This document shows, in pieces, positions 1 to 55,250 of a stretch of DNA of 64,000 bases. The position numbers and the translations under genes were made by a program. The stretch spans positions 1 through 64,000 of the forward strand of contig JAHIRD010000006.1 of NCBI GenBank assembly GCA_018818835.1, in the 5' to 3' direction. The DNA comes from Pseudomonadota bacterium. GTDB lineage: Bacteria; Desulfobacterota; Desulfobacteria; Desulfobacterales; Desulfolunaceae. Numbering within the stretch: the stretch's first letter is position 1; the number at the start of each line of letters is the position of its first letter. The notes below the pieces were generated by a model. The model made no database searches. It was not told the origin of the DNA and saw only the letters and a list, made by a program, of their open reading frames with translations.

Positions 1-3000
1 TGGGGCATACGAATAAACATTATCCCCCGCAGCAAGCCCCAGTGGATCCTGACTGATAAACGAGCCTGTCCGGGCATCAAAATACCTATGTCTGTTATAA
101 GAAAGATCAAGTTCGGGATCAAAATACTGGCCCTGGAAACGTATGGGGTTATCGAATTGATTTTCATGAATTTTTTCGATGTTTCCCAAGGCATCAAAGC
201 TGGCGGACCAGACGATGGTTCCGGCCTCATCGGTGATTTCCTGGGGAAGCCCCACAGAATCATTGTGAACGTAATGGACTTTTTTGTCTTTGTCAATGAT
301 GGCCAGGAGTTCGAAGGTGTTGGGGTAGTAGACGAATTCTCTGGGGTTGTCTTCGCCCAGGTTGTCGGATAAAAGTTGATCCCCGTCCCAGGTGAATGTG
401 GTGGTCAGGGCGTTGGTTATTTTGGACAGGCGGCGGCCCAGAGCATCATAGGTCATGGATGTCCGGGTGTATGATTCGTGATTGTATGCGGATGTTAACC
501 GGTTGCTTGCATCCCATTCAAAAGTATGGTGGCCGCGTTTGCCTTTTCTGCTGATCAGGTTGCCTGCGGCATTGAAATGGTAATCGGTTTTTTCGTGGTT
601 AAGGTGGCGTGAGCCGTCGTATTCTTCTTTGTCTCCGCGTTTGAACAGGTCGCCTGCGGGGTCATGGAGGAATTCTTTGATTTTTTGTTCGGGGTCGGTG
701 TATTGGGTGATTTGGCCCATGGGGTTGTAGGTGAAAAAGCGGCTGCCTTTGTCTGAGTCCATGCGGGCGGTGAGGTTGCCGACCGGGTCGTATTCGTAGG
801 CGCGGCTGATGGTTTTGCCTGTGGGCAGGGTGATGGCCTGGTTTGATAGAACGTTGTCGGTGGTGTAATCGTAGGTCCGGTTGAGGCCGCTGTCAAAGGA
901 TTCCGTGATGGGCAAGCCCAGGGCGTTCCGGGTGATGTCCATGCGTTTGTTGTTGATGGTGATGGCTTGGGTGCGGCCCAGGATATCATGGTCGAACCTT
1001 ATGTCGTTGCCTGTGGATGACAATCGGCGGGTGCGGTTGCCGAGGATGTCGTATTCGTGGGTGGTGCTGTGATCGCCCTGGATTTCCTGGGTCAGGCGGT
1101 TCTCGGCGTCATAGATCCGCTGGGTTTTTGCGTGTTCGTTTTCATGGGTGGTCAGGTTGCCGTTGGCATCATAGGTGTAGGATTCAAGGGTTCTGTCCGA
1201 ACCGGTTTTTTGGATCAGGCGGCCCAGGGAATCGAATGTAAAGTCGGTGATCCGGTTTAAGGGGTCGAGGCTTTGGATGAGCTGGCCTGCGGGGTCATAG
1301 GTGTAGCGGCTCTCGTTGCCCCAGTAGTCGATTTCATGGGTGATGCGACCGGCATGGTCGTGCTTGAATTCAAAGATTTCACCCCGCTGGTTGGTCAGGG
1401 TTTTTAATCGCTCTTCATTGTCATAGTCATAGGTGATGGTGGTTCCGTCGGGGTTTGTTCGTGTTTTGATCTGGCCCATGCCGGTGTAAGTGAGCCGGGT
1501 GATGTTGCCGGCTTCGTCTTTGTGGCTGACAAGGCGGTCTGCGGCGTCATAGGTGCAATAAATGTCCTTGTTCGAGGGCGTGGTGATTCGGGTCAGTCTG
1601 AACTTGTCATCGTAGGTGTATCTTGTTTTTTTGCCCTGGGGGTCGATGATGGCTGAAATATTTCCAAAGGAATCCCGCTCGATTATTTTGACCTGGCCCA
1701 GGGCGTCGGTGATTTGGGTGACCTGACCCAGTGGGTTATGATCAAACAGGGTTTTTGCGCCAATGGGGTCGGTGAAGGAGATGAGGTCGCCTTTGGTGTT
1801 GTATTCATAAAGGGTTTGGGCTCCTGTGGGGCTGATGCGCTGGGTCAAAAGGGCCCGGTCTTCGAATTTCTGCTGCCAGTGGTTGCCGTTGGGGTCGGTG
1901 ATGGAGATGGGGTTGCAATTGCCGTCATAGTCCATGGTGATTTGGGCCTCATCGGGTCGAATGACCCGGGTGAGGTTGCCCAGATGATCGTAGTGGTATT
2001 CTGTTTTTCTGCCCAGGGGGTCGATGATGGCTGTGGGCCGTCCGGTGGCATCGTATTCATGGCGGGTGACATGGTTTTTGTGATCCCGGAATGCCAGGGG
2101 GTTGAAGTTTTCATCGTATTCGATGATCCGGCTCTGGCCCTTTGAACTGGTGATTCGGGTTTCCCGGCCAATGTCGTGGTATTCGAAACGGTAGTCATAA
2201 AGGCCGTCGTCTCCCCAGGTGTGCAGGCATTTGCCCTGGGGGGTGCATTGGTCATAGTCATAGAAAAACGACTGGCCGCTTCGAAGGGTGAGGCCTGTGA
2301 GGCAGTGATTGGTGTAGGTGTAGGCAAGGGGACTGTTCAGTGAGTCGTGTGCGGTGACAAGGTCCCCGGTGTCATTATCGTAGGTGTATTCAACAAGTTT
2401 GACCGCGCTGTTGTCGGGCATGATCCGGACCATGCGCCGGATACAGCCTTTTTCCGAGATGACTGTGATCTTCTGGCCTGAAGAATCTTCGATGGTTGTC
2501 AGGTTCCGTCCCTCACGGTGAAAGACAAGGGAATTCCCCTTGGAGTCGGTGATGCGGTCACGGTAAAGGCTTGTGGCCTGGTCTTTTTTGGGGAAATAAT
2601 GGTTGATGTTGTTTTTGTCGGTGATGGTGTAATGGCTTGGGTTCTGGTGAAGGAAATAATCGCTTTTGACGTCTGCAATCGCTTTTTTATCCTTGGTTGG
2701 AGCATGGGCAAAGATACTGGCGGTTTTGCTGCCGTGGTAAAAGGTCACCGTGTCATCGTCATTTATAACAAGACGAGCATCGGCCGGGCATTGCCAGCCG
2801 GGTCCCAGAAGGCCTGTTCCGGGGGTCTGGGAACTGTAATGGCGCTCCCAGGCAAGGGGCATACGGCCAGGGAGTATAAAGTCCGTGACAGCTTCCACCA
2901 CGGCTCCGGTGATGGCGTTGACCGGATGGCCTATTTCTGCGTTTTTCTTGTTTTGTTTGTTCAGCTGGGCGTTTTCTTGCTCAAGGCTTTTTTTCACCTT

Positions 3001-4608
3001 GGGTTTTTCTATTTCGGGTGGGTCAATGGCCTTCTGTGCCCGTGATTCTGCGCGTCCGGCGCGCCCGGATGCGTCAAAATTATGCTTACCTGACAGGGCC
3101 ATGTCGATCCATTGGGAGAATTTTTCTTTGACGGCCAATTTCATGTCACCGAGCTTCCCGCTGGCTTCGGTCATGGCTTTTCTGATTTTTATCAGATCGA
3201 TGTTGACGCGTGATAATTTGTCGGCGGGTATCATGGATTGAACCCATGGTTTTTTCACATAGCTTTCTGCTTTTTTAAGGATGCTGTCCATGTTGTCAAG
3301 GGCATGCCTGAGGATCTCTTCGGCCTTGTCCATCCAGGTGCTCAGTTTGTCGGGCATGGATTTGAGAAAGCGGTGGGCATTGCCTTTACCGAATCGGTTG
3401 AGGATAGAGATGCAAAATTCCCAGAGCTTTTTTGCCTGGCCCGGGTCCAGAAGGGTACCGCCTTTTTTGAGGATGTCTGATATGTGCTTGATCATGCCTT
3501 TGAACACCCCTTTAACGGCGGAGCCCACCATGGGAATACAGCCTATGGCGATCAAAAAGACAGTGACCCACAAAAACAGTTCAAAACTCATGCCCAGGGT
3601 GTCCGGGTGTTTTTCCTTATCGGCCCGAACTTCAGGTTCAAGGCCGTAAAAATCCAGGATGGCTAAAAGGCCAGCGATGATATCCCGGATATCCAGGCCC
3701 TGGTCCACAAAGGGAACCAGCCCCAGAAGGGTGTTGGCTGCGATGTGGCTGATTTCCTGGTCTTTGTTGAAATCTCCCTGGATGAACTTCCAGAACCACT
3801 GGCCTGCTTTATAAAAGATGCCTTGGCTTTCTTTTTCATGGGGCTTGGCTTTGGGCTGCTTGTCTTCGAAGACTTCGAATTCCTGTTCATCGGCGGTAAA
3901 CAAATACCGGTATGAGCCGGTGGGATGAAGGGGCACGCCGTCGATGTGGGCCTTTCCGTTTTGATCCAAGGTGCCTTTATAGGAAAAATCCCCGCTGTCT
4001 TGACCCTTTCTGTCCGTGGATATGACCTCATAGGTGGCCCCTGCCACCGGGGTCTTGTCTGCATGAAGATACTCCAGATCAATAAAGGTGAATTCCTCTT
4101 TTTTGGGGGTCTCCTGTCCGCTGAATATGGGGATGCCTTTGGGGGTGGTTACCATCTGCCAGGAGTCTTCGGCTTCGATTTGATCGATTTCATGGCGCCA
4201 TGTGATTTTCTCAAAGATAAAGGAGACGTATTCCAGTCTATGTGCTTGGATAAGGCCTTTAACCAGGGCGTTTTCAAGGGTGATGGTATAGTAATGCTCT
4301 TCATGGGCACGTCTATTGATCCGGTACAGCCTGAGAATCACCTGGAAGATGGGCTCGTTTGTTGAAAGGGCCTGGAGAAGGCGCGGGGTGCTCTTGTCCA
4401 TGGCCTTGCATAAGGTCAGTGCCCCGTGACTCCGGGGACGGCCATAGATATACGCCCTTAATTCCTCAAGGCTGACATTCTCTTTGAGGTGACCGCTGCC
4501 GGACATGTTGAACACCTGAATGGTATCCTCACGCCCCTTGATGTCGCAGGACCCTTTGATATTTCCCTTAAAGGAGATGATTTCTGCATGGCAGATCAGT
4601 CGGGACAT
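1..4608 (-). CDS. Hcp-RHS fusion protein, putative type VI secretion polymorphic toxin (C-terminus beyond window)
   Basis: One uninterrupted frame runs from ATG at 4608 to the left edge, over 1536 codons with no stop. Residues 1-155 are an Hcp domain: they start MSRLICHAEIISFKGNIKG and resemble the free Hcp encoded just upstream. Residues about 160-235 look like a small beta domain (YLHADKTPVAGATYEV). Hydrophobic stretches follow (near residues 310-330 and 350-375, e.g. FELFLWVTVFLIAIG), then a helical, charged region. A DUF6531-like start (GHPVNAITGAVVEAVTDF) lies near residue 560. Many YD repeats follow, and the RHS core (PIRFQGQYFDPELDLSYNRH, then SFISQDPLGLAAGDN) is at about 1480-1530. 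RHS proteins form a shell around a C-terminal toxin, and that toxin and any immunity gene lie outside the window. I see no PAAR or VgrG domain. The Hcp N-terminus implies delivery by a T6SS tube. The fusion architecture is certain from sequence; the antibacterial role is inferred. Confidence 0.9.
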   Translation of the reverse strand, partial: MSRLICHAEIISFKGNIKGSCDIKGREDTIQVFNMSGSGHLKENVSLEELRAYIYGRPRSHGALTLCKAMDKSTPRLLQALSTNEPIFQVILRLYRINRRAHEEHYYTITLENALVKGLIQAHRLEYVSFIFEKITWRHEIDQIEAEDSWQMVTTPKGIPIFSGQETPKKEEFTFIDLEYLHADKTPVAGATYEVISTDRKGQDSGDFSYKGTLDQNGKAHIDGVPLHPTGSYRYLFTADEQEFEVFEDKQPKAKPHEKESQGIFYKAGQWFWKFIQGDFNKDQEISHIAANTLLGLVPFVDQGLDIRDIIAGLLAILDFYGLEPEVRADKEKHPDTLGMSFELFLWVTVFLIAIGCIPMVGSAVKGVFKGMIKHISDILKKGGTLLDPGQAKKLWEFCISILNRFGKGNAHRFLKSMPDKLSTWMDKAEEILRHALDNMDSILKKAESYVKKPWVQSMIPADKLSRVNIDLIKIRKAMTEASGKLGDMKLAVKEKFSQWIDMALSGKHNFDASGRAGRAESRAQKAIDPPEIEKPKVKKSLEQENAQLNKQNKKNAEIGHPVNAITGAVVEAVTDFILPGRMPLAWERHYSSQTPGTGLLGPGWQCPADARLVINDDDTVTFYHGSKTASIFAHAPTKDKKAIADVKSDYFLHQNPSHYTITDKNNINHYFPKKDQATSLYRDRITDSKGNSLVFHREGRNLTTIEDSSGQKITVISEKGCIRRMVRIMPDNSAVKLVEYTYDNDTGDLVTAHDSLNSPLAYTYTNHCLTGLTLRSGQSFFYDYDQCTPQGKCLHTWGDDGLYDYRFEYHDIGRETRITSSKGQSRIIEYDENFNPLAFRDHKNHVTRHEYDATGRPTAIIDPLGRKTEYHYDHLGNLTRVIRPDEAQITMDYDGNCNPISITDPNGNHWQQKFEDRALLTQRISPTGAQTLYEYNTKGDLISFTDPIGAKTLFDHNPLGQVTQITDALGQVKIIERDSFGNISAIIDPQGKKTRYTYDDKFRLTRITTPSNKDIYCTYDAADRLVSHKDEAGNITRLTYTGMGQIKTRTNPDGTTITYDYDNEERLKTLTNQRGEIFEFKHDHAGRITHEIDYWGNESRYTYDPAGQLIQSLDPLNRITDFTFDSLGRLIQKTGSDRTLESYTYDANGNLTTHENEHAKTQRIYDAENRLTQEIQGDHSTTHEYDILGNRTRRLSSTGNDIRFDHDILGRTQAITINNKRMDITRNALGLPITESFDSGLNRTYDYTTDNVLSNQAITLPTGKTISRAYEYDPVGNLTARMDSDKGSRFFTYNPMGQITQYTDPEQKIKEFLHDPAGDLFKRGDKEEYDGSRHLNHEKTDYHFNAAGNLISRKGKRGHHTFEWDASNRLTSAYNHESYTRTSMTYDALGRRLSKITNALTTTFTWDGDQLLSDNLGEDNPREFVYYPNTFELLAIIDKDKKVHYVHNDSVGLPQEITDEAGTIVWSASFDALGNIEKIHENQFDNPIRFQGQYFDPELDLSYNRHRYFDARTGSFISQDPLGLAAGDNVYSYAP

Positions 4609-5231: not shown

Positions 5232-5672
5232 CTATGCACCGGGTTCTTCCCAGGAGTCAGTGGTTTCGATGGGCGGATTTTCCCAACGCCATGTGATCTT
5301 CCGGTAACTGAACGATACGGTTTCAGTGTCATCCTCAAGGACTATGGATTTGATCCGGGCCTGCTCAAGGAGGATGGTGTAGAACAGTTCCTCATGGCCT
5401 TCGGAGATGATTTCATAAAATTTAACAAGGACCTTGGTCAATAGTTCGCTTTCGGCCAGTGCTTGTTCGAGCAGGGGACTTGACCTGTCGATGGGTTTAC
5501 TGATGATAAAAGGAGAGTGAATACGTTTTCCTCCTTTTTCTCCGGTAGGGATTTGTACCTCATGGTTGACATACTCCACAAATATCGTTCCCTCCCGGCC
5601 CTCCATGTCACAGGAACCTTTGATGGGTCCTTGTTTTTCTCCGATAATTTCAACATGAATTGGTAAGCTCAT
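5232..5672 (-). CDS. hcp: Hcp, type VI secretion tube protein
   Basis: 146 aa, matching the Hcp family of enterobacterial type: N-terminal PIHVEIIGEKQGPIKGSCD, then the GREGTI and RIHSPFIISKPIDRSSP motifs, a YTILLEQARIKSI strand, and the closing ITWRWENPP motif. Hcp hexamers stack into the T6SS inner tube and can also carry effectors. The start at 5672 has a clear AAGGAG six bases upstream. It lies upstream of, and on the same strand as, the Hcp-RHS fusion. The 623-bp repeat-rich gap argues against tight co-translation. No sheath, baseplate or VgrG gene is in the window. Confidence 0.92.
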   Translation of the reverse strand: MSLPIHVEIIGEKQGPIKGSCDMEGREGTIFVEYVNHEVQIPTGEKGGKRIHSPFIISKPIDRSSPLLEQALAESELLTKVLVKFYEIISEGHEELFYTILLEQARIKSIVLEDDTETVSFSYRKITWRWENPPIETTDSWEEPGA

Positions 5673-18789: not shown

Positions 18790-21700
18790 TCATCTGTTCA
18801 ACCAAACCCGCATCATTGAAAACAAACGATCCTGATTCATGGGCTTGGGCAGATAATCATTGGCCCCGGCTGCCAGTGATTTTTCACGATCCTCGGGCAT
18901 GGCTTTGGCCGTAAGCGCGATGATGGGAAGGTTGCGGAACCTGTCTTGTGCTCGAATTTTCTGCATGGTCTCGTAGCCGTCCATGACAGGCATCATGATA
19001 TCCATCAGCACCAGATCCATATCAGGATTTTCGTCAAGAATTTTCAGTGCCCTTTCGCCGTGTTCAGCTTTCAGCGGTGTTATGCCGGCCTCAGCCAAAA
19101 GACGGGCAACGGCGAAGGTTGTACGCATATCATCGTCCACCACAAGTACTTTTTTGTTCTTGAAAATCGTATCTGTGTTATGGAGATCCTGAATCACTTT
19201 CCGGTTTTTCTCAGACATCCGGCTGACCACCCGGTGCAGGAAAAGAGACACGTCATCAAGCAGGCGTTCCTGGGACCTTACATCCTTGATGACGATGGAT
19301 TCGGCATGTTCCCGAATGGTGGATTCCTCTTTTGGGGTCAGATCCCGTGCTGTGTAGACAACCACAGGGGGTAGTGAAACACCCTCACGCTCAAGAATTG
19401 ACAAGAGTTCGTTTCCATCCATATCGGGTAGTCCAAGATCCAGAACAACGCAGTCATACAGGCCAGTTCGGAGGGCTGCAAGGGCCTGTTCGCCGCTTTC
19501 GGCTTCATCGGCCGTGACATCTCCGTTGCCGATCAATGCCACCGTGGCCCTGCGGATTGATGCATCGTCATCCACCACCAGCAGTCGTTTGGGTTTTCCC
19601 GCAGCCATCTGTTCCAGCTTCCGGAAGGCGTCTTCGAGATCCTCTTGTTTGACCGGCTTGGTCACATGGCCCACGGCACCTTTGCCCATGGCCCGTGTGG
19701 ATGCATCTTCAGCGGAAATGATATGCACTGGAATATGCCGGGTTCGGATATTCTCTTTGAGGAAGCCCAGAACGGTCCAGCCATCCATTCCCGGAAGGCG
19801 TAAATCGAGAATCACCGCCTGGGGCACGTATCGAATTGCCAGCTCCAGCCCTGTTTCTCCTGTGACGGCGGCCAGGAATTTGAATCCCTTTTCATGACAT
19901 TTTTTAGATAAGAGCCGTGCGAAAATAGGATCGTCTTCAATGACCAGCATCACCCGGTCCGACGGGTCAATGCTGTCCCGATCGTCGGGAATCTGGATGG
20001 CGGGCTCAAGGGTGGCCGGTTTCAGTTCAAACGGTTTGGGGACAGTGAGGTTCTCAATGGGTTTCATGGGGCCTTTCAGGGGCAGGTAAGCCGTGAAGGT
20101 CGAGCCCTTGCCCGTGTTACTTTCCAGATGGATTTTCCCACCGAGAAGGATCACCAGCTCACGGGATATGGAAAGTCCCAACCCCGTGCCGCCGTATTTT
20201 CTGGATATACCGCCATCGGCTTGTTGAAAGGCTTCAAAAATGAACTTGTGCAGTTCCGGGGAAATTCCGATACCTGTATCCTTGACCGAAATGGCCAGGC
20301 TGTCTTCAGGCGATAGTCCGCTTATTGAAAGATCTGTCCCAGGTGCGGGGCAGCCGATGGTGACGGTAATGCTTCCTGCTTCCGTGAATTTGAGTGAATT
20401 TGCGATCAGATTGCGGAGGACCTGTTCCAGCTTCTGCCGGTCGCTTGTGATCACCTCCGGGGTATCCTTATCCACACGGAATGTAAGCGCAATGCCCTTT
20501 TCATCGGCAAGATGCTGAAATGAGTCTTTCAGATTGTTTACAAGGTCAAGGACGTGAACTGTTCCGAAGGTGAGAGAAATTCGTCCTGCCTCAATTTTGG
20601 ACAGATCCAGGATTTCATTGATCAGTGTCAGCAATTCACTGCCTCCGCCATAAATGATCCGAGCCGATTCAACCTGTTCCTCGGTCAGATTCCCCTCTTT
20701 GTTGCGGGTCAGTCCCAGGGCCAGCAGAAGCAGGCTGTTGAGGGGGCTGCGAAGTTCGTGGGACATGTTTGCCAGGAATTCTGACTTGTATTTGCTGGCC
20801 AGGGCCAGGGCCTCGGCCTTTTCTTCGATATTGCGACGGGCAAGCTCAATGTCCTTGTTCTGACGCTCCAACAGATCGCTTTTTTCTTCAAGCTCTTCAT
20901 TGGTCACAACCAGCTCTTCCTGCTGGGCCTTGAGTTCCTCTTCGGATTGCTGCAGCTGCCGAGCTTGTTCCTCCAGTTCTTCGTTGGAAACCCGGAGCTC
21001 TTCCTGTTGTGACTGGAGTTTCAGGTTTTGTTCTTCGAGATTTTCCGAAAGGGCCTGTATACGCTGGAAAGCCAGCACCCCATTCATCCGATCCGTTAGT
21101 GTCATTAAAACCCCCTCCAGAAGCTGGACAGCTTCAGGGGTATACCCTTGGATACTTGAAAGAGAAAGCATGCCGGACGTCTCATGGTTCACGACCAGGG
21201 GCATGGTGATGATCTCTTTGGGCCTGAAATCCCCTCCCACCGTGGCAAAGGTGAATCGGGAATCTTCGGGGATATTGGTGACCCGTTGCATCTTTCCGGT
21301 GGCCAGGGCTGCACCGAACTCACCTTCAGCCTCCACAGCGGAAAACGCATTGCGTTTCCCAGGGCCTAATCCGATGGATTCAAAATGATCAAATATGGTT
21401 TTCTCAGGGTTCAGCAGATAAATGGCACCCATCTGTGAGTCTGTGAGGCGGAGGAGTACCTTGAGAAGTTCCCGGCAGAAGGAATGTGCTTCGGTTTCCC
21501 TGAGCATGATATTGCTGATTTGATCGGATTGTTCATTGATTCGCATCTGTTTTTCAAGGGCTTCAGCCATTTTGTTGAACATGTGGGAAAGGACACCGAA
21601 TTCGTTTGCGGAAATATAATCGCACCGCACGTCCATATTCCCCTGGCCGAACTGATCGGCAGCCTGGGTCAATTGCCGGAGAGGGTTTTTGATACTTGCA

Positions 21701-23010
21701 AGCAGTCGCCAGGAAATGATCAGGCCTATCAGAAAAATGCTGCTGATAATGACGAACAGTTCCCGGTTTAATGAATTTTTTTGTTCCAAGGATTCCTGGT
21801 ACAGGTGATCACCCATGTTTTGTGCGAAATCTTCCACATTCAGGATATGTCCCATCAACACGATTTTCTGGTCACCGCCAGGGCCACCGGTTTTGGTACG
21901 AGCCACTGCTTCTGAAGATTTTCCTGCCCTGAGCAGCCGAAGTGTTTCATCATGGATGGCATTCCATGTGACAAATTCGTCGACAAGCATGGAGATATCG
22001 CTTGGGGGACCCAAATAACGGTTATACAAGATGTCCAGCTGCCTGAATGCGTTGGTTTTTCGGGTTTCCATTTCCCGAACGGCCATTTCAATTTCCTGGG
22101 AGTTTTTTGCCAGAATCACATCTTTCATGGCCCGGTGAATGGTCAGAATGTCGGCTTCAAGGGCGCCAAGGGCAATGCGGACCTGGAGGGGATGATCATA
22201 CATGGTCCTGGTGTTTGTCCATAGCAGGTCGGTCTGTTTCCAGGCCACCACGCCGAGGATCAGAACCAGTGACAAGCCGACACTCAATCCAAGGTTCAGC
22301 TGGATCCCGATGGGCATGTCGTTCAAGGTCCGGTACCATCGTCCCGATGCCGGGCCATGGAACATGGCAGTCATGACCAGGGCACACCCGATAAACAAAA
22401 AGGAAAACGAGCTTGACAAGGCCATGGGGGTGATCGAGCGTCCATAAAGTAAGGGTTTTCCCAGGCTGTAACCAATGAGGAAGAGTATCCCGGTTAACAT
22501 GATGGCCAGGCCGGAATACCCTGATAAAGATAACCAGACTCCGGCGTGCCTTTTTCGTGGAATCCCCCGGATGAGGGAGAACAGGGAAAAACCGGAAAGC
22601 AGAAAAAGAAATCCTGTGACAGGAGACATGCCTCCTGTGCCATGGTCCCCCAGTGTTGCCATCTCTTTAAACAGAAGAATGTCGGGGCTTATGGGCAAAC
22701 CTGTCAGCCACCCGGAGACCACAAGGAGTCCGTAGAGGGCAACCAGGCCACCGGAAATCATGGCCCATGGGTTTTCTGCCGGACCTTCCACGGGGCGAAT
22801 TGTGATCAGCAAGGGCAGGGCGATAAGGATAAAGCAAATGGCAGTGCTCGGGGCCATGGGGATGAATTCTTTATGGTAATCCGCAAGGATCTGAACCCCG
22901 GTCACCCTGTCGAACAGGCTGAAAAAGGGCATTGTCATGGCTGCAGAAATCACTATCAATGAAATTCGTCGTGCATGGATGGTGGTTCCGCCTGAAACCG
23001 TTTGTGCCAT
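18790..23010 (-). CDS. membrane hybrid sensor kinase with HAMP, GAF, kinase core and three receivers
   Basis: 1406 aa. An N-terminal membrane block has about six to eight helices (residues 15-255), then a four-helix-bundle type sensor region ends in a helix near 450. A HAMP (PLRQLTQAADQFGQGNMDV), a GAF-like domain (about 540-690) and a long Glu/Gln-rich coiled coil (SNEELEEQARQLQQ repeated) follow. HisKA has FLANMSHELRSPLN, and HATPase has DTGIGIS and GGTGLGLSI. Three receivers follow, with AVILDLRLPGMDG, CVVLDLGLPDMDG and LVLMDIMMPVMDG. AAGGAA precedes the ATG. It is the first gene of the cheR-cheB-kinase operon, 94 bp upstream of cheR. Confidence 0.93.
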   Translation of the reverse strand: MAQTVSGGTTIHARRISLIVISAAMTMPFFSLFDRVTGVQILADYHKEFIPMAPSTAICFILIALPLLITIRPVEGPAENPWAMISGGLVALYGLLVVSGWLTGLPISPDILLFKEMATLGDHGTGGMSPVTGFLFLLSGFSLFSLIRGIPRKRHAGVWLSLSGYSGLAIMLTGILFLIGYSLGKPLLYGRSITPMALSSSFSFLFIGCALVMTAMFHGPASGRWYRTLNDMPIGIQLNLGLSVGLSLVLILGVVAWKQTDLLWTNTRTMYDHPLQVRIALGALEADILTIHRAMKDVILAKNSQEIEMAVREMETRKTNAFRQLDILYNRYLGPPSDISMLVDEFVTWNAIHDETLRLLRAGKSSEAVARTKTGGPGGDQKIVLMGHILNVEDFAQNMGDHLYQESLEQKNSLNRELFVIISSIFLIGLIISWRLLASIKNPLRQLTQAADQFGQGNMDVRCDYISANEFGVLSHMFNKMAEALEKQMRINEQSDQISNIMLRETEAHSFCRELLKVLLRLTDSQMGAIYLLNPEKTIFDHFESIGLGPGKRNAFSAVEAEGEFGAALATGKMQRVTNIPEDSRFTFATVGGDFRPKEIITMPLVVNHETSGMLSLSSIQGYTPEAVQLLEGVLMTLTDRMNGVLAFQRIQALSENLEEQNLKLQSQQEELRVSNEELEEQARQLQQSEEELKAQQEELVVTNEELEEKSDLLERQNKDIELARRNIEEKAEALALASKYKSEFLANMSHELRSPLNSLLLLALGLTRNKEGNLTEEQVESARIIYGGGSELLTLINEILDLSKIEAGRISLTFGTVHVLDLVNNLKDSFQHLADEKGIALTFRVDKDTPEVITSDRQKLEQVLRNLIANSLKFTEAGSITVTIGCPAPGTDLSISGLSPEDSLAISVKDTGIGISPELHKFIFEAFQQADGGISRKYGGTGLGLSISRELVILLGGKIHLESNTGKGSTFTAYLPLKGPMKPIENLTVPKPFELKPATLEPAIQIPDDRDSIDPSDRVMLVIEDDPIFARLLSKKCHEKGFKFLAAVTGETGLELAIRYVPQAVILDLRLPGMDGWTVLGFLKENIRTRHIPVHIISAEDASTRAMGKGAVGHVTKPVKQEDLEDAFRKLEQMAAGKPKRLLVVDDDASIRRATVALIGNGDVTADEAESGEQALAALRTGLYDCVVLDLGLPDMDGNELLSILEREGVSLPPVVVYTARDLTPKEESTIREHAESIVIKDVRSQERLLDDVSLFLHRVVSRMSEKNRKVIQDLHNTDTIFKNKKVLVVDDDMRTTFAVARLLAEAGITPLKAEHGERALKILDENPDMDLVLMDIMMPVMDGYETMQKIRAQDRFRNLPIIALTAKAMPEDREKSLAAGANDYLPKPMNQDRLFSMMRVWLNR

Positions 23011-23505
23011 GTGCCTGTTCCTTTTATTTTTTGCTGAATCTTAGGGTGTGCGATCCACGGAAACATGTATATAAATTACGTTAAAATAATTCTATCGTAA
23101 ATTAATGGCCTTATAGCCAGTCATTTTGGAGGTTCCGGTGTAATCTTATAATCCTTACAAACCGCTGAGAAATGTATAGTTTTGCCTGAAAGACAGGTCG
23201 GAATATTGAAAGGTTTACAAAAAAATATTATCAGTTTTGGCGTACGATTTCAATTTTAAAAAGAAACAAGCCAAACACTGTAGCGCTGGATATGTTTTTT
23301 TTCGTCGCCATCAACGGTGATGCCCATAAGTCATATGAGTTATATAGGTCCTATATGCCCCAATTAAGTATGATTTTTTGTTTGTTACACTGTGCCCGGT
23401 CATGGTATACACATTGATCATTATTTCAATTGTTAAACGTTCGCCCCCTTTACCTAAACGCGTAACACAACACAGAGTACATGACCCAATCATAAGGAGA
23501 ATCCC
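23011..23505. other. 495-bp divergent intergenic region
   Basis: It separates the big kinase (minus) from the DUF362 gene (plus). It is AT-rich with a 9-bp repeat tract at 23326-23361 and no credible gene. Promoters for both genes should lie here, but I could not single one out with confidence. Confidence 0.5.
23326..23361. repeat. 9-bp tandem repeat tract
   Basis: Units ATAAGTCAT, ATGAGTTAT, ATAGGTCCT, ATATGCCCC. It belongs to the same degenerate ATRRGTCCY family as the tracts at 7.2, 29.5 and 53.9 kb. Confidence 0.7.
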
Positions 23506-24576
23506 ATGCATCGTGTGATGATACATCCAGCCACATACGCCAATTGTAGAAATGCAGTGGATCAGGCCTTTACTCTTTTCCCCATGGATATGAGGAATAA
23601 AAAGGTGTTGATCAAACCCAATGTGCTTCGTGCATCCAATGCAGATGAACATATCGTGACTCATCCGGCTTTGTTGAAGGCCGTTGTTGAAAAGATCGAA
23701 GGTCTGTCTCCGTCTCAGATTATGGTGGGGGACAATCCCGGTATATTCAGCTACGGTGACAATGAAAAAAGTTTTATAGAGACCGGTTTGATGCAGGCAT
23801 GTAAGGGCTATTACCGGAATCTGGGCAATCATCCCCGGCATCTTGCCTTTAATCCGGAGTACATGGCTGAAGTTGCGGTTTCCGAAGAAATTTTAGACGC
23901 AGACATTGTCATCAGTCTGCCCAAGTTCAAGACCCATGGCCTTACCGTGATGACCGGGGCCATCAAAAACAGTTACGGCATCCTGCCCGGAGCCCAGAAG
24001 GCCCGATTGCACCAGATCGCCGGGACTCCGGAGCGGTTTCATGAGGTGATCGTGGATGTGTTTTGTCTGAGGGTTCCGGATTTATTTATTGTTGATGCGG
24101 TGATGGGTATGGAAGGAAATGGCCCGGCATCGCCTGACCTGAGAGAGATCGGACTGGTTCTGGCGGCGGATAACGCCGTGGCCTTGGATGGGGTCATCGC
24201 CACCATGATGGGCCTTGATCCCTCACGGCTGAAATTTCTCAGAAAAGCAAAGGACCTGGGTCTGGGAGATTATGATCCGGCCATGATCCGTATTGAGGGG
24301 GAGTTGACTGTCCTTGAAAATTTCAAGCTTCCCCCCCTGGGCGGCGAGGCCATTGCCGGAAATCCCATTATCCAGGAATTCATGGACAGCAAAGTGAAAG
24401 TAAGGCCCATGGCGGACAAGGATCTGTGTACCTCATGCGGTGCCTGCATTGATCATTGTCCGGTCAGCGCCCTTTCCATGAATGATGATGACCTGCCTGT
24501 TGTGGATATGGATCTGTGCGTTACTTGTTTCTGTTGCCAGGAGATCTGTCCGGAAAAAGCCATGCGGTTGGCCTGA
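23506..24576 (+). CDS. DUF362 protein with C-terminal 4Fe-4S ferredoxin domain
   Basis: 356 aa with AAGGAG before the ATG. Residues 1-290 are DUF362 (KVLIKPNVL, VGDNPGIFSYGDNE, ISLPKFKTHGLTVMTGAIKNSYG). The C-terminal part has two cluster motifs, CTSCGACIDHC-P and CVTCFCCQEIC-P, typical of a 2x[4Fe-4S] ferredoxin. Members are common in anaerobes and presumed to be redox proteins; the reaction is unknown. No operon partner follows. Confidence 0.9.
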   Translation: MHRVMIHPATYANCRNAVDQAFTLFPMDMRNKKVLIKPNVLRASNADEHIVTHPALLKAVVEKIEGLSPSQIMVGDNPGIFSYGDNEKSFIETGLMQACKGYYRNLGNHPRHLAFNPEYMAEVAVSEEILDADIVISLPKFKTHGLTVMTGAIKNSYGILPGAQKARLHQIAGTPERFHEVIVDVFCLRVPDLFIVDAVMGMEGNGPASPDLREIGLVLAADNAVALDGVIATMMGLDPSRLKFLRKAKDLGLGDYDPAMIRIEGELTVLENFKLPPLGGEAIAGNPIIQEFMDSKVKVRPMADKDLCTSCGACIDHCPVSALSMNDDDLPVVDMDLCVTCFCCQEICPEKAMRLA

Positions 24577-24692
24577 GGATTAACCCGTGATTTTTAGTGG
24601 AATTTTTTAATGACGGCTGATACAGTTCATTTAATACTTGATCATCACGCGATTTATAATCGTATCTGATATTGGCAGATTGTATACATTGA

Positions 24693-25028
24693 ATGACAGA
24701 GACATTTGTTATGAACAAGACGTTGAAAACCAAAGATTATATTTTACGCATCATCCTGGACAACCGGACAAAGCTTTCATTCTTCGGAGTCAAGAAAATT
24801 GGTCTTTTCGGTTCATTCGTACGTGGTGAACAGACATTCACAAGTGATGTGGATATTCTAATCGACTTCTTTCCTGAAAAACATACATTCGACAATTTTA
24901 TGGATGTTTCTTTCTTTCTTGAAGATCTCCTTGGCTGTAAGGTCGATCTCGTCACTTCGAAGTCCCTGAGTCCCCATATAGGGCCATATATTCTAAAGGA
25001 GGTAGAGTTTGTCACTCTCGCCGCATGA
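24693..25028 (+). CDS. MntA-like minimal nucleotidyltransferase (antitoxin)
   Basis: 111 aa from 24693, or 105 aa from the ATG at 24711. The nucleotidyltransferase motif GSFVRG...SDVDILIDF (GSx10DxD type) is intact, as in MntA proteins that add AMP to a tyrosine of the HepT toxin. The stop overlaps the start of the HEPN remnant, the normal mntA-hepT coupling. The partner toxin is gutted, so this gene is probably a relict or may act on another HepT in the genome. Confidence 0.85.
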   Translation: MTETFVMNKTLKTKDYILRIILDNRTKLSFFGVKKIGLFGSFVRGEQTFTSDVDILIDFFPEKHTFDNFMDVSFFLEDLLGCKVDLVTSKSLSPHIGPYILKEVEFVTLAA

Positions 25029-53917: not shown

Positions 53918-54727
53918 TCAAAGACCTTTTTCAAGCCTTCTTTTGGAAAATATGTCATCGGCAAGGTTCTGATTGAATGCAACCTGGCTGATGGTGATGT
54001 CTGTTTTGTGAACAACGTCATCACCGCGTTTTTTGATTACCTTGATGCTCAGGCTGACCCATATCCCTTCAATTTTCTGAAGATCATCAAAATCAATTAG
54101 CTTGATATAATCTCCTTCGGTTGTCCAGGCTTTAATCCGGGTGACCATATAATTGTCCTGCCTGATAGCATAAATGGATTTTTTGTACCCTGTTTCATCC
54201 ATGACTTTTTCGGAACGGGGCGTGGATTCAATCAACCAACACTGGGCTCCTTTAAGATCAAGTTCCTTGAGGAGTTTGAAATCGTAGTCCGGCAACTCAC
54301 GGGAACTCATATCCGAATAGTTCATGTCCGAACCCATGAAACTTCCATTCTTGTCATTGGATGCAATGCGCTTGGATTTTCCCAGGGCTGGCAGGTAAAG
54401 GAACTGGTCGTCATCTTTTGTGGGGTCATCATAATCAAGGGTGAGAAATCCTGTGTTTTTGATACTGGGCGGATCCACGATGAACATGATGGTATGGGTG
54501 TCCTTGCCATGGTCCTTGGAAAAAATTTTGAAATATTTTTTTCTCTCATCGTTGTTCTTATCGATGAGGACCATAAGCATGTCATTGGTGCGATTGTCGC
54601 CATTATCCCTGTCGTCGACCTTCTGCATGATCTCACGGGCTTTGGGATCATCGGCAAAAGAGAAGGCAGGGGTAATCAGGGTCATGGTGATCATGAGGAT
54701 GAAAAGGGTGGCCAGATGTTTTTGCAT
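53918..54727 (-). CDS. outer-membrane lipoprotein-sorting (LolA-like) protein
   Basis: 269 aa with signal peptide (LATLFILMITMTLITPAFSFA). The mature protein follows the LolA-like group often encoded with RND exporters: DPKAREIMQKVDDRDNGDN, IMFIVDPPSIKNTGFL, FLYLPALGKSKRI, DYDFKLLKEL. No RND gene is adjacent. TTGGAGACC lies upstream of the ATG. It has its own promoter and stands downstream of the GEMM riboswitch-terminator unit. Confidence 0.85.
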   Translation of the reverse strand: MQKHLATLFILMITMTLITPAFSFADDPKAREIMQKVDDRDNGDNRTNDMLMVLIDKNNDERKKYFKIFSKDHGKDTHTIMFIVDPPSIKNTGFLTLDYDDPTKDDDQFLYLPALGKSKRIASNDKNGSFMGSDMNYSDMSSRELPDYDFKLLKELDLKGAQCWLIESTPRSEKVMDETGYKKSIYAIRQDNYMVTRIKAWTTEGDYIKLIDFDDLQKIEGIWVSLSIKVIKKRGDDVVHKTDITISQVAFNQNLADDIFSKRRLEKGL

Positions 54728-55012: not shown

Positions 55013-55245
55013 CAAGCTAAGGCAGCCCTGCTACCATGTCTCTATACACTTTCCAGGATTTACAAACTATTCTTTCGAGATCATTATTTTTTTTACGTTG
55101 ATGTTAGATGAATCTGCCTTGTTTATTAACAAAACGATTCGTTTAAAATCGATCTCTACTTAAATTAAACCCGAACGTTAATGTTATAAAGGGTTAGGCC
55201 AGTGGCTTTGCGTCCCACTCTTTCGGGTGGTTTGCTTTTAGCTTG
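55013..55245 (-). ncRNA. GEMM-I cyclic-dinucleotide riboswitch with large P3 insertion, GEMM-Ib-like (A20)
   Basis: Read on the minus strand. P1 5' strand CAAGCTAA (55245-55238), then AAGCAAACC. The P2 hairpin is closed by CCAC..GTGG with a CGAAAG tetraloop, followed by GGGACGCAAAGCC (A47 kept) and ACTGGCCTAA. After about 145 inserted bases come GAGACATGG, TAGCAGGGCTGCC (C92 kept) and the P1 3' strand TTAGCTTG (55020-55013), a perfect 8-bp match. P3 can form as CCA-c-TG with CATGG. Standard aptamers are about 85-90 nt; this spans 233. The base before GCAAACC, position 20 in Vc2 numbering, is A. A20 is the mark of GEMM-Ib riboswitches selective for 3',3'-cGAMP in Geobacter. Promoter and terminator abut it. 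Confidence 0.85.
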
Positions 55246-55250
55246 ATTCC

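What the first reader, a model, noticed from the sequence alone, without database searches (positions are those of the whole stretch)
1..4608. Hcp domain fused to a full RHS polymorphic toxin
RHS effectors usually ride on the T6SS spike through PAAR or VgrG. Here residues 1-155 are Hcp, followed by membrane-like segments and a complete RHS shell. An RHS shell seems too large for the lumen of an Hcp tube. The fusion raises the question of how it is loaded: at the tube tip or end, or outside it. Hcp proteins with small C-terminal toxins are known; I am not sure an Hcp-RHS arrangement has been described.
Basis: partly seen in the sequence, partly recalled or inferred. Interest (0 to 1): 0.85.

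Follow-up and report, generated by a model that had tools for sequence, protein, structure and literature searches.

The report
T6SS tube protein fused to Rhs toxin
A bacterium, probably of the order Desulfobacterales, carries a very large toxin-delivery protein in which the tube subunit of its type VI secretion needle is fused, in one reading frame, to a toxin-enclosing Rhs shell; this pairing was not found in some 1,500 other genomes or in the open literature searched, and it makes it testable whether such a shell has to travel with the needle at all.

Summary
Window 1-4608 (-) is one stop-free ORF of 1536 codons: an Hcp domain (Pfam E 3e-21), a linker, and a nearly complete Rhs shell matching solved T6SS Rhs effectors (E 4e-88 to RhsA). 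The contig starts here, so toxin and immunity gene cannot be read. A chimera is unlikely: frame and coding statistics are continuous. The linker (residues ~172-505, prealbumin/TTR-like domain plus helical, partly hydrophobic module) is a T6SS effector part: the same region sits behind a VgrG in Pseudoalteromonas, and the helical module in a stand-alone protein beside vgrG in Rahnella. Among about 300 Hcp-bearing genomes of roughly 1,500 searched, no other listed Hcp ORF reached 900 aa (next longest 881). At the linker/shell border lies GHPVNAITGA, aligned to the proven N-terminal self-cleavage site of RhsA (H304|P305). I propose that the PAAR/TMD head of an RhsA-like effector has been replaced by Hcp-TTR-helical module, and that self-cleavage at H561|P562 leaves a 64-kDa Hcp carrier that need not drag the 111-kDa shell into the tube. 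New variant of a known kind (specialised Hcp / Rhs polymorphic toxins), known from one truncated instance.

The parts
1..4608 (-). hcp-rhs gene, 1536 codons seen, 3' end (toxin) beyond contig edge
4618..4621 (-). likely ribosome-binding site GGAG, 9 nt before the ATG
   Evidence: sequence
4144..4608 (-). Hcp domain, residues 1-155 (Pfam 13-139); long L2,3 loop, 12-residue loop lost relative to the canonical Hcp
3874..4095 (-). TTR/prealbumin-like beta domain, residues ~172-245 (ADKTPVAGA...)
   Evidence: homology to the VgrG-borne region of L072, where Pfam SpaA (prealbumin-like) matches at E 0.0014, below its curated cut-off; strands in a low-confidence model
3094..3831 (-). helical module, residues ~260-505 (GDFN...P.VDQ..D.RDI), shared with other T6SS-linked effectors
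3490..3606 (-). strongly hydrophobic stretch, residues ~335-373, possible membrane segment
   Evidence: Kyte-Doolittle
2923..2928 (-). predicted N-terminal self-cleavage site H561|P562 (GHPVNAITGA, aligned to RhsA H304|P305)
   Evidence: PMC8765631
1..2925 (-). Rhs shell, residues 562-1536: DUF6531 (2722-2931), 13 RHS repeats, RHS-associated core (4-192)
34..48 (-). first DPLGL motif of the C-terminal aspartyl autoprotease; the second motif lies beyond the contig edge
   Evidence: sequence; related 3' ends of the genome carry both
5232..5672 (-). free accessory Hcp, 146 aa, upstream of and on the same strand as hcp-rhs

Best explanation
[quoted passage not shown] Proposed mechanism: the shell folds around the C-terminal toxin; the protein cuts itself at H561|P562 (and near DPLGL at the C-terminus); the 64-kDa Hcp-TTR-helical fragment takes a subunit place in an Hcp ring of the genome's single T6SS and, still holding the plug and/or the toxin non-covalently, is fired. 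The shell serves mainly as a folding and storage chamber, as reported for Tse15, rather than entering the ~40 A lumen. Shown here: domain order, single open frame, homology of linker and of the cleavage site, presence of a T6SS. Inferred: cleavage, ring incorporation, toxin tethering, antibacterial target.
For: Hcp, RHS-repeat and DUF6531 models are all well over cut-off. Rhs matches T6SS Rhs structures from residue ~560 on. GHPVNAITGA aligns with RhsA THPVHAATGA, where H304A/P305A blocks cleavage (PMC8765631). The linker (176-442) is homologous to the C-terminal part of a VgrG that carries a WHH/colicin-type nuclease (L072; E 2e-26), and its helical part to a protein directly after vgrG inside the Rahnella T6SS cluster. 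Hcp followed by a TTR-like domain also occurs in Hcp fusions of relatives (L038). The genome has one T6SS cluster with sheath and canonical Hcp, a VgrG and no PF05488 PAAR. Precedents: Tse15 N-terminal and toxin domains are secreted far more than the cage (PMC11461821); Hcp-fused toxins are T6SS-delivered (Ma 2017, as reviewed in PMC6730261).
Against: No experiment. Only one instance, truncated before toxin and immunity. The linker alone past Hcp is 45.6 kDa, itself large for the lumen given that a 30-kDa addition to Tse1 arrested assembly (PMC8262886). RhsA's own cleavage mechanism is unknown, so conservation of H-P may not guarantee cutting; the +7/+8 glutamates of TseI-type sites are absent here, as in RhsA. 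The structure model was too poor to use (pLDDT 45). The Hcp domain has lost a 12-residue loop kept by the canonical Hcp.
Confidence: 0.5

Rival explanations
1. The whole Hcp-Rhs protein is carried uncut: its Hcp domain forms or joins a ring at one end of the tube (next to VgrG or at the distal end) and the shell sits outside the lumen.
For: The Hcp domain covers nearly the whole Pfam model and keeps a long L2,3 loop, a loop needed for Hcp secretion in APEC (PMC5874247). RhsA and Rhs1/Tre23 fragments stay associated after cleavage (PMC8765631, PMC8636562), so a shell can travel with its head.
Against: A shell at the distal end would hinder further ring addition; next to VgrG it would compete with the VgrG base (inference). 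The cleavage motif suggests separation.
Confidence: 0.25
2. The Hcp domain is no longer a tube subunit but a docking head that binds another Hcp or VgrG, and the protein is loaded as cargo.
For: The Hcp domain is only 39-43% identical to the other four Hcps compared in this genome and lacks a 12-residue loop; the helical module is also used by stand-alone proteins without any carrier domain.
Against: Nearly full-length Pfam/TIGR match. The free Hcp and the two Hcp fusions of the same genome share the same loop loss, so it is an accessory-Hcp trait rather than decay of this one gene.
Confidence: 0.15
3. Assembly or frameshift artefact joining an hcp gene to an rhs gene, or a pseudogene.
For: The contig ends inside the gene; fragmented assembly of 334 contigs; no second example of the full architecture.
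Against: One frame of 1536 codons with steady coding statistics; Hcp->TTR joins also exist in relatives and a carrier->TTR->module join in Pseudoalteromonas; the contig break lies in the repeated Rhs core end, not at the Hcp join.
Confidence: 0.05

Closest known systems
RhsA of Pseudomonas protegens (prePAAR-TMD-PAAR-Rhs, PDB 7q97)
   Same: Rhs shell, DUF6531/plug region, HPV..TGA N-terminal cleavage motif, DPLGL C-terminal motif
   Different: Head here is Hcp-TTR-helical module, not prePAAR-TMD-PAAR
Hcp-ET effectors (Enterobacteriaceae; Ma 2017, read through reviews)
   Same: Toxin-bearing protein with N-terminal Hcp
   Different: Described extensions are nuclease, DUF2235, pyocin S3 or peptidase domains, no Rhs shell
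Tse15 of Acinetobacter baumannii
   Same: Helical N-terminal region before an Rhs cage, separated by self-cleavage, thought to tether the toxin to the machine
   Different: Tse15 is cargo that binds the Ig-like domain of VgrG15; no Hcp; a relation between the two helical regions was not tested
VgrG-TTR-module-nuclease of Pseudoalteromonas piscicida (L072)
   Same: TTR plus helical module between carrier and toxin, E 2e-26
   Different: Carrier is VgrG and there is no Rhs shell

Membership tests
Specialised Hcp effectors (Hcp with C-terminal extension) | N-terminal Hcp domain covering the family model, with an extension of at least 60-120 aa | tested here: met
Specialised Hcp effectors (Hcp with C-terminal extension) | Delivered with the Hcp tube | not testable with these tools
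   needs a secretion assay
T6SS Rhs polymorphic toxins | YD/RHS repeat shell with DUF6531 and RHS-associated core | tested here: met
T6SS Rhs polymorphic toxins | N-terminal cleavage motif in front of the shell | tested here: met
   sequence motif only, aligned to RhsA; cleavage itself untested
T6SS Rhs polymorphic toxins | C-terminal aspartyl-protease motif pair, variable toxin, immunity gene | tested here: inconclusive
   first DPLGL present, rest beyond the contig edge; related 3' ends in the genome carry different tips
PAAR-type Rhs (RhsA class) | PAAR or PAAR-like domain at the N-terminus | tested here: not met
   no PAAR in the Pfam/NCBIfam scans of the protein; none in the genome by PF05488

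The most novel reading that the evidence does not exclude
An Rhs toxin that is loaded through the tube rather than the spike: Hcp subunits, one or more per ring, bring self-cleaved Rhs toxins to the growing T6SS tube, so that the T6SS could carry several Rhs toxins per shot instead of one per PAAR tip.
Probability: 0.25. Interest if true: 0.8.

Novelty: new variant of a known kind. Interest (0 to 1): 0.6.

Why it matters
T6SS Rhs toxins are thought to be mounted on the VgrG-PAAR tip. An Hcp-borne Rhs departs from that rule and gives a natural test of whether the cage travels or stays behind, and of how large a tube-borne cargo can be. The TTR-helical module, unnamed in Pfam and NCBIfam, looks like an interchangeable adaptor used behind Hcp, behind VgrG and alone.

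Tried and rejected
Genome-contig scan with the 536-aa Hcp+linker: nothing; with the linker alignment: six module loci, none with Hcp+Rhs. tblastn in plasmids and phages: no record covers >=80% of Hcp+linker or of linker+Rhs. Viral contigs: nothing. AlphaFold2 of residues 1-559 with 8 rows gave pLDDT 45 and was not used for fold searches. PHROGs and PADLOC gave nothing of use. Considered and rejected: CDI/surface delivery (no such N-terminal domain), phage tail-tube origin (best solved matches are T6SS Hcps).

Full report
Observation. The minus-strand frame 4608->1 is open for 1536 codons and runs off the contig, which starts at window base 1. It begins at an ATG with a GGAG site 9 nt upstream. 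Pfam and NCBIfam place Hcp at residues 13-151, DUF6531 at 560-629, 13 RHS repeats, and the RHS-associated core at 1473-1535, cut by the edge. By sequence, the first 155 residues match solved Hcps (best 3he1, 5e-13), and the remainder matches T6SS Rhs effectors such as RhsA (7q97, 4e-88), RhsP, Tse15 and Tre23. Position-specific GC is steady across the frame. An artefactual in-frame join of two genes is therefore unlikely, though only long reads can exclude it.

Surroundings. A free accessory Hcp of 146 aa (5232-5672, -) lies upstream on the same strand. The rest of the window shows no T6SS genes by inspection of the ORF list (not scanned by model). The genome (about 6.75 Mb in 334 contigs, 98% complete) has one sheath gene, in a cluster on C233 with the canonical Hcp and further T6SS genes that I read as tssK, tssL, tssM, tssB, tssE, tssF, tssG and clpV from their order and sequence (not each tested by model). 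It has one VgrG, cut by a contig edge, and no match to the PAAR model PF05488 (PAAR-like families not tested). It holds eight Hcp matches, among them two fusions in frames of 486 and 491 aa. The free Hcp and these fusions share with Hcp-Rhs the loss of a 12-residue loop of the canonical Hcp, while Hcp-Rhs has a longer L2,3 loop. The host's order is inferred: the module proteins of the same-order genome G094 (L027, L048) are identical to those of contigs titled Desulfobacteraceae bacterium Nau_4 (L067, L071), so the host is probably of Desulfobacterales.

Why the contig ends here. The end of the Rhs core is 69-85% identical in DNA to four other Rhs 3' ends in the genome (C61, C183, C291, C225), which carry different tips; the one on C183 is followed by a DUF7674 protein. 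This is the usual picture of an Rhs family with exchangeable toxin cassettes, and such repeats tend to break assemblies. No other Rhs N-terminal half was found in the genome.

The linker. Residues 176-442 match a region of a Pseudoalteromonas VgrG (697-942, E 2e-26), where a prealbumin-like domain and the helical module stand between the VgrG and a WHH/colicin-type nuclease. The helical module also begins stand-alone proteins, one of them directly after vgrG inside the Rahnella aceris T6SS cluster. Other carriers are Jannaschia, Tritonibacter, Herbaspirillum, another Burkholderiales genome, [Pseudomonas] boreopolis, Acinetobacter and the Desulfobacteraceae genome above. All four genomes of this set that I searched have Hcp. 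No Pfam or NCBIfam model covers the module. I read it as a T6SS effector adaptor used behind Hcp, behind VgrG and alone.

The cleavage site. RhsA is cut between H304 and P305, and H304A/P305A blocks the cut (PMC8765631). In the alignment of the shell with 7q97, RhsA THPVHAATGA lies against GHPVNAITGA here, so the cut would fall at H561|P562. The +7/+8 residues are A and V (A and K in RhsA), not the glutamates of TseI. The two halves would be 63.6 kDa (Hcp-linker) and 111 kDa (the part of the shell that is seen).

How it may work. The Hcp lumen is about 40 A (PMC10433429), and a 30-kDa addition to the cargo Tse1 arrested sheath assembly (PMC8262886), so a folded shell inside the tube is not credible. 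For Tse15, N-terminal and toxin peptides are secreted much more than cage peptides (PMC11461821). I therefore favour a self-cleaved protein whose Hcp half joins a ring and carries plug and/or toxin, the shell acting mainly as a chamber (confidence 0.5). The difficulty is that the linker alone is 45.6 kDa. An uncut protein placed at a tube end is the main rival (0.25).

How rare it is. T6SS_HCP was searched in 395 genomes of the phylum (43 with Hcp), 389 of the order (101), 369 of the class of Herbaspirillum (71) and 349 of its order (92), with small overlaps. Apart from the gene in question (frame 1537 aa) no listed Hcp frame reached 900 aa; the longest was 881 aa, which reads as Hcp-TTR/LysM-like-DUF2235 (DUF2235 by my reading, not by model). 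The last list was cut off, so a weak match could be missed, and genes broken by contig edges would not show. Plasmid and phage records gave no protein with most of linker plus Rhs. In the open-licence literature 'Hcp-Rhs' does not occur. The 2012 survey of polymorphic toxins describes short Hcp1-fused toxins and long RHS toxins as separate groups (PMC3482391), and reports on specialised Hcps name nuclease, DUF2235, pyocin, colicin and peptidase domains (PMC8262886, PMC10433429). Subscription papers and full protein databases were not searched, so 'not described' is provisional.

Verdict. A real, in-frame Hcp-Rhs fusion; new variant of a known kind; one truncated instance; mechanism inferred.

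Noticed in passing
L084 690-5923 (G000:C233 about 19690-24920): Downstream of the tssE-like gene and before the tssF-like gene lie four to five near-tandem copies of a gene pair (about 115-aa protein plus about 230-aa protein with a signal-peptide-like start), perhaps an amplified effector/immunity or accessory array.
   Followed up: no
L041 (G000:C293) and L035 (G000:C254): Two Hcp fusions with closely related C-terminal parts of roughly 320 aa; the one scanned (L041) matches no Pfam family there, so possibly an undescribed toxin domain; each is followed by a similar short ORF.
   Followed up: partly
L053 and L054, base 1 (contigs C241 and C238): Two more contigs start inside hcp genes about 91-92% identical in DNA to the free Hcp of the window, with a related upstream leader; more accessory hcp loci are hidden by assembly breaks.
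   Followed up: partly
L027 and L048 (G094): Two proteins with the helical module in tandem and different C-terminal parts (one a WHH/colicin-DNase), both cut at the 5' contig edge; whether an Hcp precedes them is unknown.
   Followed up: partly
window 55162-55246 (-): c-di-GMP-I riboswitch above its gathering score, upstream of the gene at 53918-54727 (-).
   Followed up: no
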